From positions 1 to 31,891 of the IMG/VR virus record IMGVR_UViG_3300042731_000820: a stretch of DNA of 31,891 nucleotides; one strand, 5' to 3'. The notes below the pieces were generated by a model. It made no database searches and was not told the DNA's origin. It saw only the letters and a program-made list of their open reading frames with translations. The stretch is from a virus. How positions within the stretch are numbered: the stretch's first letter is position 1; each line of letters starts with the position of its first letter. Shown here in pieces: positions 240-15,836 of this stretch. A program made the position numbers and the translations under genes.

Positions 240-1121
240 ATGATGAAAGATCTAAAAACCCCACTTCGATACCCCGGCGGCAAATCACGTGCCGTCGATT
301 TTCTATTTTCTTCGGAGAACATGCCCGTCAATGACATCCGTGAATACCGCGAGATGTTCCTAGGTGGTGGGTCGTGTGCGTTCGCGTTCACTAAAAAGTT
401 CCCCCATATTCCCGTCAAGGTCAACGACAAATACTACAACCTGTATTGCTTCTGGAAGACTCTTCAGTCTCGTGGTGACGACCTTGCGGACAAACTACAC
501 GAAGTCAAGGATGAACTGATCCGTGCAGAAGATTCTTTGCAGGCACACCTTGACTACTACCACGTTATGCGTGAGGGTCTGAATACCGCAGAAGATCCTT
601 TTGAGATCGCGTGGCAGTTTTACATCATGAACCGATGCTCGTTCAGTGGACTGGGTGAGACCACTGGTTCGTTTTCAAAAGATGCGGTGCGTGACCTATT
701 CAACCATCGACTGATTGGTAAGTTACCTAAGTTCTCTGCGTTGATGCGCAACTGGGAGATCACCAACGAGGACTACTCGTATCTGTTGGATGGTGCGGAC
801 AAGAACACATTTATCTTTGCGGATCCACCCTACGACATCAAGTCGTTCATCTACGGTAACAATGGAGACATGCACGACACGTTCTGTCACAAGCGATTCC
901 ACGATGAACTCGATAACACCGATGCGATGGTGATGATCACCTACAATTCTAATGACACACTCAAGCAGGCGTACACTGGTTGGAATCAGTTGGAGTGGGA
1001 TTTGACCTACACGATGCACTCCGGTAAGAAATATCGTGAGGACGAACACAACCGAAAAGAACTACTGCTCTGGAACTATGAGGAGCAGGGTGTATCTACC
1101 CTTGACGCATTCTTCGGTTAG
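240..1121 (+). CDS. dam: DNA adenine (N6) methyltransferase, Dam / D12 class
   Basis: Transfers a methyl group from S-adenosylmethionine to adenine N6 in DNA. The 293-residue protein begins with the class signature LRYPGGKS (residues 9-16). It has the AdoMet-binding FLGGG loop (40-44) and the catalytic DPPY motif (195-198), in the order expected for the alpha/D12 class. T4 Dam is about 260 residues, so the length fits. Two ATGs (240, 243) lie directly after a consensus promoter, so the message is probably leaderless. The gene opens a block of DNA-metabolism genes. In a phage it most likely protects the genome from host restriction or marks it for replication or packaging. The target site (GATC or another) cannot be told from the sequence. 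Confidence 0.93.
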   Translation: MMKDLKTPLRYPGGKSRAVDFLFSSENMPVNDIREYREMFLGGGSCAFAFTKKFPHIPVKVNDKYYNLYCFWKTLQSRGDDLADKLHEVKDELIRAEDSLQAHLDYYHVMREGLNTAEDPFEIAWQFYIMNRCSFSGLGETTGSFSKDAVRDLFNHRLIGKLPKFSALMRNWEITNEDYSYLLDGADKNTFIFADPPYDIKSFIYGNNGDMHDTFCHKRFHDELDNTDAMVMITYNSNDTLKQAYTGWNQLEWDLTYTMHSGKKYREDEHNRKELLLWNYEEQGVSTLDAFFG

Positions 1122-13811: not shown

Positions 13812-13840
13812 TTGACACACGTTTCTAAATCAAGTACAAT
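13812..13840 (+). promoter_or_regulatory. Promoter of the restriction-like cassette
   Basis: TTGACA (13812-13817), 17 nt, TACAAT (13835-13840). Predicted start near 13847, giving a leader of about 28 nt with GAGAG before the ATG at 13875. It lies in the 82-base gap after the cupin gene and heads the three-gene cassette. Confidence 0.8.
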
Positions 13841-13874
13841 TACTCTGTAATTTGATGATGAGAGATTAATTGTT

Positions 13875-14366
13875 ATGACCCCTGAACAAGAATTTAAGAA
13901 ACTTTTTGAACGAATGTACGAACTGTGTCAAGAGAACGATTGGGGAGACCCATTCTCTTATGCTCGTTCGCGTGAGATTCACATTGCCGGTACACTAGGA
14001 CATGAGATTAGTCCTACCTTGTCTGGTGCCGACGGTATCGACGAAGCTGGTGAGTGTGAGTACAAGTCGACCATTGCTAAGAAGATTCAAGGTACATACA
14101 ACGGCATCTCTGTCCAACCATCTTGGTCAGATCAAGTCAAGTACCTAGAAGAGAAGAAGATCTTGAAGTACGCCCATCACTATTTTGCTCGATACAACGG
14201 TGGTGAGATCGCTGAGATTTACCGATTGACAGGTCGTCAAGTTTTTGATATAATCGTACCCAAATTGAAAAAGAAGTTTCCAAACGCCGCTGGTAAGAAA
14301 GATCCACGTCTAGGCGCTATGGTGACACATACTGAAATCCTACGAAACGGAGTTAAGGTTTTATGA
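13875..14366 (+). CDS. Restriction-endonuclease-like protein (PD-(D/E)XK type, putative)
   Basis: 163 residues. LGHEISPTLSGADG (41-54) is followed by IDEAGECEYKST (55-66). D53 (or D56) with E62-x-K64 makes the D...E-x-K catalytic core of PD-(D/E)XK nucleases, and the SGADG...EYKS pattern is familiar from type II restriction enzymes. The C-terminal half is helical and basic and could bind DNA. The stop overlaps the next ATG by four bases (ATGA). Its downstream partners, a ParB-like protein and an adenine-methylase-like protein, support a restriction-modification-like cassette. Codon use is richer in T-ending codons than in surrounding genes, suggesting import. It could instead be a homing or host-DNA-degrading nuclease. 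Confidence 0.65.
   Translation: MTPEQEFKKLFERMYELCQENDWGDPFSYARSREIHIAGTLGHEISPTLSGADGIDEAGECEYKSTIAKKIQGTYNGISVQPSWSDQVKYLEEKKILKYAHHYFARYNGGEIAEIYRLTGRQVFDIIVPKLKKKFPNAAGKKDPRLGAMVTHTEILRNGVKVL
14226..14254 (+). promoter_or_regulatory. Perfect consensus promoter inside the nuclease-like gene
   Basis: TTGACA (14226-14231), exactly 17 nt, TATAAT (14249-14254): twelve of twelve bases. Transcription from about 14261 would make the ParB-like and methylase-like proteins without the nuclease-like one. That is the logic expected if protection must be made separately from, or before, cutting. Confidence 0.75.
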
Positions 14367-15295
14367 TAGTAGATTATGATCGTGTAGACGGTCTTTACAA
14401 AAAGCGAGTTAGTGGCGAGTTGAATGCCCAAGAGGTCAACATCGACCCATTCTTTAAAGTGGTAGACAAGGAAGAACGTATTGCGGAACCCGTTAATCGC
14501 GTTCAGGTTAGAGAGTATTTGGTTGATCCTAATAAGGTCAATAAGATTGCCCAACTTATAATAAGAAACGGCGATCGTAATATCGACCCTATGGATATCG
14601 TTGTGAATTATCCCAACGATGCTGGTCAAGCCATCATTGGTGGTAACCATACTTGCGGCGGTCTTTTTGAGGTAGGTCGCGATTCTGGAAAAGCATTTGT
14701 CTACGATTTCTTTGAAGATTTTGACGGAAATAAAGAGAACGTCAAGAGATATGCGAACCTTGTAAACTGTCCAAGTGACGGTAAGTTTAGTGACTTTATC
14801 ACTGAACATGAAGTCAAGCGAGAATTGTATGACTTGATGGATGCTCGTCAAAAAGCTGGACTTGAGGCAGTACCATCGGAAGAAGAAAAGAGGAAGCTTC
14901 TGCAGCCATATCCTTTTGTCAATCTAGCTACTCTAGGACAGTGGATCGGACATCACCCAACTTACGGCGGACGTGTTGCACCAAGAATCATGTACGATCC
15001 AGCGAAACTTGCCAGTATCCGAGTTTCATATGAGCATATGGAAGCATACAAAGGTTGGAATATTTTATCACCAAGAACTTTGAATGCGGCGAACGAAGAA
15101 GCTCTAGCGGCGGCAATAAAGAAGATCACAGAGACGGGGATCAAAAAAGTTCTGATTCCGATTTATGCGAGTACAAAAGCACACGCAGATAGACTCGCTA
15201 AGGGTGAAGTGCAGGCATCGATTCAAAAAATGTACGACGAAATCGGTGAAGTGTTGGGTATTACCTTGAAGGCTGAATTCTTAAAGTATGAGTAA
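14363..15295 (+). CDS. ParB/sulfiredoxin-like domain protein
   Basis: 310 residues. The N-terminal part (about 40-125) fits the ParB/Srx fold: a VREYLVDPNKVNKIAQLI segment, then IVVNYPN and the signature-like IIGGNHTCGG (91-100) with a G-x-N-H core where ParB has D-G-x-H-R. The C-terminal half (about 160-310) is mostly helical. ParB-like domains in phages act as nucleases, CTP-binding switches or DNA-binding adaptors. Here it sits between a nuclease-like and a methylase-like protein, so it may be a specificity or control subunit. It overlaps both neighbours (4 and 8 bases). The function is inferred from context only. Confidence 0.55.
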   Translation: MIVDYDRVDGLYKKRVSGELNAQEVNIDPFFKVVDKEERIAEPVNRVQVREYLVDPNKVNKIAQLIIRNGDRNIDPMDIVVNYPNDAGQAIIGGNHTCGGLFEVGRDSGKAFVYDFFEDFDGNKENVKRYANLVNCPSDGKFSDFITEHEVKRELYDLMDARQKAGLEAVPSEEEKRKLLQPYPFVNLATLGQWIGHHPTYGGRVAPRIMYDPAKLASIRVSYEHMEAYKGWNILSPRTLNAANEEALAAAIKKITETGIKKVLIPIYASTKAHADRLAKGEVQASIQKMYDEIGEVLGITLKAEFLKYE

Positions 15296-15836
15296 ATCCT
15301 TTGCAAAAGAACTGACATATTCTGTCGGTGGTAATGATGAGTGCTACACCCCAGACTATGGGGTGACACCTATCTTAAAATACATACCCGTGGGTGCCAC
15401 TGTGTGGTGCCCTTTCGACACTGAAGAGTCTGAGTTTGTCAAGCAAATATCCCAACAGAATAAAGTTGTTCGATCCCATATATGGGACAACCAAGACTTT
15501 TTTGAGTACGAACCAGACAGATGGGATGTGATGGTATCCAACCCGCCATTCACTAACAAGAGAAAGTACTTCGAACGAGCATTGAGTTTCAACAAACCCT
15601 TCGCTCTAATCATGACTAATACTTGGTTGAACGATTCTGCTCCTAAGCAACTGTTCAAAGAGAAGGATCTGCAACTATTGATGTTTGAACGTAGGATGAA
15701 GTTTAATTCTCCAGACGGTCGACCTAATGACAAAATCACGTTCAGTTCTTCGTATTACTGCTGGAACTTTTTACCCAAGCAAATTATTATGGAGACTTTC
15801 CCTGAACCAAAATCTCCACTTGAGGAGTTTATGTAA
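15288..15836 (+). CDS. Adenine-N6 methyltransferase-like protein (NPPF motif)
   Basis: 182 residues. The AdoMet-site region VWCPFDTEESEF (39-50) is followed by DVMVSNPPF (80-88), whose NPPF matches motif IV (D/N-P-P-Y/F) of adenine methyltransferases. From memory, very similar short proteins are frequent in phages and prophages of Firmicutes, where they receive uncertain names. That fits with the whole cassette having been imported. There is no obvious separate target-recognition domain, so recognition may need the ParB-like partner. The start overlaps the upstream stop by eight bases. The next gene starts on the last base. Confidence 0.7.
   Translation: MSKSFAKELTYSVGGNDECYTPDYGVTPILKYIPVGATVWCPFDTEESEFVKQISQQNKVVRSHIWDNQDFFEYEPDRWDVMVSNPPFTNKRKYFERALSFNKPFALIMTNTWLNDSAPKQLFKEKDLQLLMFERRMKFNSPDGRPNDKITFSSSYYCWNFLPKQIIMETFPEPKSPLEEFM

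What the first reader, a model, noticed from the sequence alone, without database searches (positions are those of the whole stretch)
13875..15836. Three-gene restriction-modification-like cassette with a ParB-like middle protein
A D...E-x-K nuclease-like protein, a ParB/Srx-like protein with a GGNH core and an NPPF methylase-like protein overlap by 4 and 8 bases, share T-rich codon use, and have their own promoter. The methylase-like protein resembles ones I associate with Firmicutes phages, suggesting transfer. This trio could be a phage-borne anti-competitor or self-marking system not matching the usual type II layout.
Basis: partly seen in the sequence, partly recalled or inferred. Interest (0 to 1): 0.8.

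Follow-up and report, generated by a model that had tools for sequence, protein, structure and literature searches.

The report
ParB-like gene inside phage restriction cassettes
Viruses of water bacteria carry small cut-and-protect gene pairs, and in many of them a third, freely swapped gene with a DNA-partition-protein fold sits between cutter and protector, probably to control them; this third part seems not to have been described.

Summary
The three genes are real and placed as stated. R (163 aa) is a PD-(D/E)XK nuclease, PvuII-like but below Pfam's cut-off. M (182 aa) is a short DNA methyltransferase of family phrog_799. Elsewhere R is usually followed directly by M: a plain phage-borne restriction-modification pair. 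X (310 aa, phrog_5778) models as a ParB/Srx fold (ParB Z 10.1), with the signature arginine replaced. X is an optional third gene that recurs with five nuclease families and four methyltransferase families. Loci retrieved by X, or by a second ParB-fold family X', have a nuclease or methyltransferase within 1.5 kb in 43 of 53. Of 19 nuclease-retrieved pairs with a gene-sized gap, 17 hold X or X'. Near-identical phages differ by a clean swap of only this gene (S-RIM2: R 98%, middle 22%, Dam 100%). X often has its own consensus sigma-70 promoter; in the window it lies inside R. Against a dedicated restriction role, 8 of 36 X/X' clusters stand apart from any R or M seen. Best reading: a portable, catalytically degenerate ParB-type DNA-binding regulator expressed with M (confidence 0.4); rivals are an independent counter-defence gene or a methyltransferase helper. 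Transfer from Firmicutes is not supported.

The parts
13875..14366 (+). R: PvuII-like PD-(D/E)XK nuclease, 163 aa (D53, E62, K64)
   Evidence: phrog_35715 E 2e-72; Pfam PvuII E 0.0044, below cut-off; best 1.2e-4, 6 of 18 family members hit; catalytic residues invariant in 18 of 18
14363..15295 (+). X: ParB/Srx-fold protein, 310 aa; Q48-V49-R50, GGNHT at 93-97
   Evidence: phrog_5778 E 1.2e-49; model mean pLDDT 73, pTM 0.42; ParB 6sdk Z 10.1, Noc Z 9.5-10.0, KorB Z 8
15288..15836 (+). M: short DNA methyltransferase with NPPF, 182 aa
   Evidence: phrog_799 DNA methyltransferase E 3.3e-33; EcoRI_methylase E 7e-4, below cut-off
13812..13840 (+). sigma-70-like promoter ahead of R (11 of 12)
   Evidence: consensus scan
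14226..14254 (+). perfect sigma-70 consensus promoter inside R, about 110 bases ahead of X
   Evidence: consensus scan; 17 of 38 X/X' genes have at least 11 of 12 upstream against 0.33% of dinucleotide shuffles
13838..13852 (.). 6-3-6 inverted repeat overlapping the -10 end of the R promoter; possible operator, may be chance
   Evidence: script

Best explanation
R and M form a compact Type II-like restriction-modification pair of the phage: M marks phage DNA and R cuts unmarked DNA of the host or of rival phages (inferred from families; untested). X is an optional, portable third gene. Shown here: it has a predicted ParB/Srx fold, lacks the arginine of that superfamily's signature, often carries its own consensus sigma-70 promoter, and usually overlaps the start of M. 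Inferred: X is a DNA-binding regulator of the ParB/KorB/DndB sort whose nucleotide site is degenerate. It would be made early with M, act at its own promoter and set when or how strongly M (and so safe use of R) is expressed. Because it acts on DNA rather than on one enzyme, unrelated-looking ParB-fold genes (X or X') can fill the same slot next to unrelated nucleases and methyltransferases.
For: ParB fold, with ParB, Noc and KorB among the top structural matches; alignments to Noc (model residues 5-199) and KorB (21-198) run past the N-domain into the helical part that follows it. X' also models as ParB/Srx, weaker: ParB Z 7.1 over 94 residues, Srx Foldseek probability up to 0.96. Own promoter: 17 of 38 X/X' genes have at least 11 of 12 consensus bases and 10 of 38 all 12, against 0.33% and 0.013% of shuffles; 0 of 105 M genes directly after R and 0 of 21 M genes after X/X' reach 12. 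X or X' overlaps the following M in 20 of 22 clusters where M follows. Five nuclease and four methyltransferase families as partners argue against one fixed protein partner. In the L103/L104 swap the left breakpoint falls in the promoter spacer, so the spacer, -10 and leader travel with the X allele. The signature arginine is T in 10 of 11 X and G in one, which speaks against catalysis.
Against: 8 of 36 X/X' clusters show no R or M within 1.5 kb; one of them is cut upstream, one has a methyltransferase-like gene further upstream, and the nine records searched are fragments of 4-35 kb. In the Dam-PDDEXK_11-X, nuclease-PF05869-X and R-Dam-X' layouts X follows M, so it cannot set M by translational coupling there. 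No operator or DNA binding is shown. 20 of 35 clusters with upstream sequence score below 11 for a promoter. The cyanophage promoters share TTGACAACTGA and are not independent. X and X' profiles do not align significantly (hhalign probability 2.8%). The X model has pTM 0.42.
Confidence: 0.4

Rival explanations
1. X/X' is an independent accessory ('moron') gene with its own promoter, for example a counter-defence or superinfection-exclusion factor, for which R-M cassettes are merely a favoured landing site.
For: Own promoter. Stand-alone copies: X in L183-L185 and X' in L217/L218 lie between capsid-like and tail-tube-like genes (my reading of the sequences), and X in L207 and X' in L216 lie in one tail-fibre-like region, so X and X' replace each other there too. 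Strong divergence and clean swapping suit an arms-race gene.
Against: 43 of 53 X/X'-retrieved loci have R or M within 1.5 kb; of the 19 nuclease-retrieved R-M pairs with a gene-sized gap 17 hold X or X', one a distant X-like protein and one another gene; overlap with M in 20 of 22 clusters.
Confidence: 0.27
2. X is a helper of M, like ParB-like DpdB for 7-deazaguanine insertion or the ParB domain fused to an adenine methylase: it loads M on DNA or makes it more processive.
For: X or X' overlaps M and occurs with M without R beside it (L203/L204, L211). Precedents read in passages: DpdB (PMC12839542), ParB-methylase Bce_0392 (PMC5512222).
Against: 105 of 130 R-M pairs of the same families have no X; partners are four M families; the signature arginine is lost.
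Confidence: 0.18
3. X is a nuclease: either a second effector or a homing-type nuclease that spreads its own gene.
For: Some ParB/Srx proteins nick DNA (PMC5512222, PMC4619093); near-identical flanks around swapped genes look like recent mobility.
Against: Arginine of the signature motif lost in 11 of 11 aligned X. The insertion sites (PvuII-like/M799 against EcoRI-like/Dam pairs) are different gene pairs, which does not suit a homing site.
Confidence: 0.1

Closest known systems
Type II restriction-modification pairs (PvuII, EcoRI and MvaI/BcnI-like nucleases)
   Same: Adjacent PD-(D/E)XK nuclease and DNA methyltransferase genes; the EcoRI-like group contains one member above the Pfam EcoRI cut-off.
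   Different: Phage-borne, short enzymes, and an optional ParB-fold gene in between.
C-protein-controlled R-M systems
   Same: A third gene tied to the cassette that may time M against R.
   Different: C proteins are small HTH proteins (recalled); X is a 310-aa ParB-fold protein that usually precedes M, not R.
DndB in phosphorothioate systems
   Same: ParB-superfamily gene in a modification operon, reported as ATP-modulated negative regulator (passages of PMC10853773).
   Different: DGQHR signature there; X has GGNHT and X' DGQHT or DGQHE; no Dnd genes seen beside it.
DpdB and ParB-methylase fusions
   Same: ParB-like protein or domain tied to DNA modification.
   Different: X is a separate protein, without the signature arginine, beside ordinary methyltransferases.
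ParB/Noc/KorB
   Same: Predicted N-domain fold and following helical part.
   Different: No role in partition indicated; GERR-type arginines (recalled) replaced.

Membership tests
Type II R-M system | PD-(D/E)XK nuclease with conserved catalytic residues | tested here: met
   D53, E62, K64 invariant in 18 of 18; assignment to PvuII itself stays below Pfam's cut-off for the window protein
Type II R-M system | DNA methyltransferase encoded next to the nuclease | tested here: met
   window M; 105 of 130 R-then-M pairs adjacent
Type II R-M system | Nuclease and methyltransferase share one recognition site | not testable with these tools
   needs methylome and cleavage data
PvuII endonuclease family | Pfam PF09225 above curated cut-off | tested here: not met
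   17.4 bits against 25 for the window protein; best of 18 members E 1.2e-4
ParB/Srx superfamily | ParB/Srx fold | tested here: met
   predicted model; ParB 6sdk Z 10.1, 98 residues, 2.4 A
ParB/Srx NTPases and nucleases | Arginine closing the signature motif (GERR, GCHR, DGQHR; recalled) | tested here: not met
   GNHT or near variants in 10 of 11, RNHG in one
ParB partition protein | Partner ParA ATPase and parS site | not tested
   no ParA search was made
C-protein-controlled R-M | Small HTH controller | tested here: not met
   X is 310 aa with a predicted ParB/Srx fold
DndB/DGQHR family | DGQHR motif | tested here: not met
   X GGNHT; X' DGQHT or DGQHE

The most novel reading that the evidence does not exclude
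X and X' are alleles of a general third component of phage R-M cassettes, a ParB-fold 'licensing' factor that reads DNA rather than a partner enzyme. Since otherwise near-identical phages swap it between near-identical R and M genes, it, not R or M, would define which phages exclude or tolerate each other in a co-infected cell.
Probability: 0.15. Interest if true: 0.85.

Novelty: new variant of a known kind. Interest (0 to 1): 0.6.

Why it matters
If X controls phage-borne restriction, lytic phages have evolved a portable safety device for a dangerous enzyme, built on the ParB fold and re-used with unrelated nucleases. It would explain how restriction genes can ride on lytic phages of Synechococcus and other aquatic bacteria, and the S-RIM2 strains give a ready natural experiment: same R, same Dam, two different middle genes.

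Tried and rejected
Firmicutes transfer: rejected, nearest M relatives are Prochlorococcus phages. X as strictly part of a three-gene unit: rejected, since R-M pairs without X dominate and some X stand alone. Sequence searches of solved structures with X, R, M and the EcoRI-like R found nothing significant. The one scan of GTDB genomes with X found no relative, so no cellular copy is known here. PADLOC and NCBIfam gave only weak M hits or chance hits. hhalign of X against X' is not significant, so their kinship rests on the predicted folds. Search of nine X/X' records without an adjacent R-M for D12, PvuII-like, EcoRI-like and phrog_799 genes found none, but the records are fragments, so this is inconclusive. 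Palindrome avoidance was computed to guess specificities: PvuII-like plus phrog_799 carriers avoid CATG and AGCT, but sister phages are over-represented and the window itself shows no strong avoidance of either, so it was not used. The operator idea rests on one inverted repeat in the window and repeats in some X' promoters; kept only as a hint. Paper searches for a ParB-like component in phage Type II R-M cassettes gave no description of this arrangement in their listings; subscription journals and preprints were not covered.

Full report
OBSERVATION. The window is a whole IMG/VR virus record of 31,891 bases. It carries UvsX-like recombinase, DnaB-like helicase and NifU-like genes and eight tRNAs, so I take it for a tailed, T4-like phage fragment (inference). 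There is an 11-of-12 sigma-70 promoter ahead of R and a 12-of-12 one inside R ahead of X.

THE THREE PROTEINS. R matches phrog_35715 (E 2e-72) and Pfam PvuII weakly (E 0.0044, below cut-off). In 18 relatives D53, E62 and K64 are invariant, and 6 of 18 hit PvuII, best 1.2e-4. X matches phrog_5778, of unknown function (E 1.2e-49), and no Pfam family. Its predicted model (pLDDT 73, pTM 0.42) finds Noc, sulfiredoxin, free serine kinase and ParB in the PDB. On re-alignment: ParB-CDP Z 10.1 (98 residues, 2.4 A), Noc Z 10.0 and 9.5, KorB Z 8.0-8.2. M matches phrog_799, DNA methyltransferase (E 3.3e-33).

R-M PAIR. A scan with the R family found 351 confirmed relatives in IMG/VR, of which the best 80 were kept. 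A scan with the EcoRI-like nuclease of cyanophage S-RIM2 found 95, of which 80 were kept. Over all loci L007-L175, 163 R genes of three families were seen: 130 have a known M downstream, 105 of them directly (under 150 bases), 22 with 150-2500 bases between, 3 farther; 33 have no M of these families downstream in the stretch held. So R-M is a normal two-gene cassette.

THE SLOT. Of the 22 gaps, 20 hold X or the second family X' (phrog_2558), one holds a 346-aa protein that the X profile finds at E 1e-5 in a set of seven sequences (L108), and one a 143-aa protein that I read as HNH-like (L072). Leaving out L007 and L012, which were retrieved by X itself, and L095, a phage record fetched for comparison, the count is 17 of 19 (L108 and L072 being the other two). 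Duplicates remain in it (L113/L114 and L115/L116). In the tree of 62 EcoRI-like R proteins the occupant of the slot changes at least 11 times; well-supported branches force at least 5 for the X-less state.

CLEAN SWAPS. Four S-RIM2 records carry X and 54 records carry X' at 95% or more. Between KX349262 and HQ317292 R is 98% identical, Dam 100%, the middle protein 22%; DNA flanks are 99.7% over 1,428 bases and 100% over 1,485. L103 and L104 have identical R, identical Dam over the 70 residues compared and X proteins only 35% identical. There the left breakpoint falls within the promoter spacer (sequences).

UNBIASED CONTEXT. Scans with X and X' profiles gave 36 and 17 loci. Of these 53 loci, 43 have a nuclease or methyltransferase of a recognised family within 1.5 kb. 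In 36 clusters at 90% identity, 25 have both, 2 only M, 1 only R, and 8 neither. The 8 are L183/L184, L185, L200 (cut upstream), L202 (a methyltransferase-like protein two genes upstream), L206, L207, L216 and L217/L218. Partner nucleases: PvuII-like, EcoRI-like (one fused member above Pfam's EcoRI cut-off, 29.9 against 22 bits), PDDEXK_11, an MvaI/BcnI-like family below cut-off, and a 290-aa family without a meaningful hit (P0007), which I count as a nuclease from its place alone. Partner methyltransferases: phrog_799, D12, N6/N4 and PF05869 Dam. X or X' overlaps the M that follows in 20 of 22 clusters. In two further cyanophages, QB2 and S-IOM18, a distant X' precedes a Dam gene.

PROMOTERS. 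In 38 representative X/X' genes, 17 have at least 11 of 12 consensus bases within 200 bases upstream and 10 have all 12; dinucleotide shuffles give 0.33% and 0.013%. In an earlier set 14 of 27 X/X' genes reach 12, against 0 of 105 M genes directly after R, 0 of 21 M genes after X/X' and 3 of 156 R genes. Many cyanophage promoters share TTGACAACTGA, so they are not independent events.

SECOND FAMILY. X' (model pLDDT 72.5, pTM 0.69) finds Noc (Foldseek E 0.055, probability 0.87) and sulfiredoxin (probability up to 0.96) and ParB at Z 7.1 over 94 residues; a Z below 8 alone would be weak, but the top 22 rows are all ParB/Srx proteins. X and X' profiles do not align significantly. Both lack the signature arginine: X has GNHT or near variants in 10 of 11 and RNHG in one; X' has DGQHT or DGQHE. 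A distant ParB relative in Ochrobactrum phage POI1126 keeps DGQHR.

MECHANISM. ParB/Srx proteins in conflict systems act as NTPases, nickases or regulators (passages of PMC5512222; PMC4619093; PMC10853773; PMC12839542). Loss of the arginine, a private promoter, overlap with M, indifference to the families of R and M and co-swapping with the promoter core favour a DNA-binding regulator. The stand-alone copies, the layouts in which X follows M, and the divergence of alleles speak against a dedicated R-M regulator and for an accessory-gene reading. I put the regulator first at 0.4.

NOVELTY. Nuclease, methyltransferase and ParB fold are each known, and ParB-like partners of DNA modification exist (DndB, DpdB, ParB-methylases). 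I found no description of an interchangeable ParB-fold gene in the slot of phage Type II-like cassettes in the searches named under Tried and rejected. Papers were read only as passages; the rest were seen as search listings.

Noticed in passing
window 240-1121: A D12-type DNA adenine methyltransferase (phrog_56, E 3e-67) lies elsewhere in the same record, apart from the cassette.
   Followed up: no
L205:2-979: A single ORF with an EcoRI-family nuclease part (Pfam EcoRI above cut-off) fused to an NPPF methyltransferase-like part, followed by X.
   Followed up: partly
L103:3715-3900, L104, L109, L101, L118, L120, L141: A conserved 61-aa ORF overlaps or abuts the stop of the EcoRI-like R, before the promoter of X or X'; function unknown, no Pfam hit.
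   Followed up: partly
L002:3983-4989: In Synechococcus phage ACG-2014b Syn7803C76 the X gene is split by a short duplicated stretch, whereas other ACG-2014b records match as one piece: a broken copy or a sequencing artefact.
   Followed up: no
L021-L023: Relatives that share the cupin-like gene and a protein like the window's 15836-16138 gene carry R and M about 3 kb apart and no X.
   Followed up: partly
R/M loci L015-L175: Carriers of PvuII-like R plus phrog_799 M strongly avoid CATG (0.15) and AGCT (0.22); EcoRI-like plus Dam carriers avoid AATT (0.43). Could reflect own or host restriction.
   Followed up: no
L193:1202-2296: A 364-aa protein with a DGRTR core, ParB-like by my reading, lies directly upstream of X, which is followed by a nuclease and a D12 methyltransferase; no Pfam hit.
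   Followed up: no
L183-L185: Stand-alone X carries an N-terminal extension of about 150 residues, conserved in the three loci.
   Followed up: no
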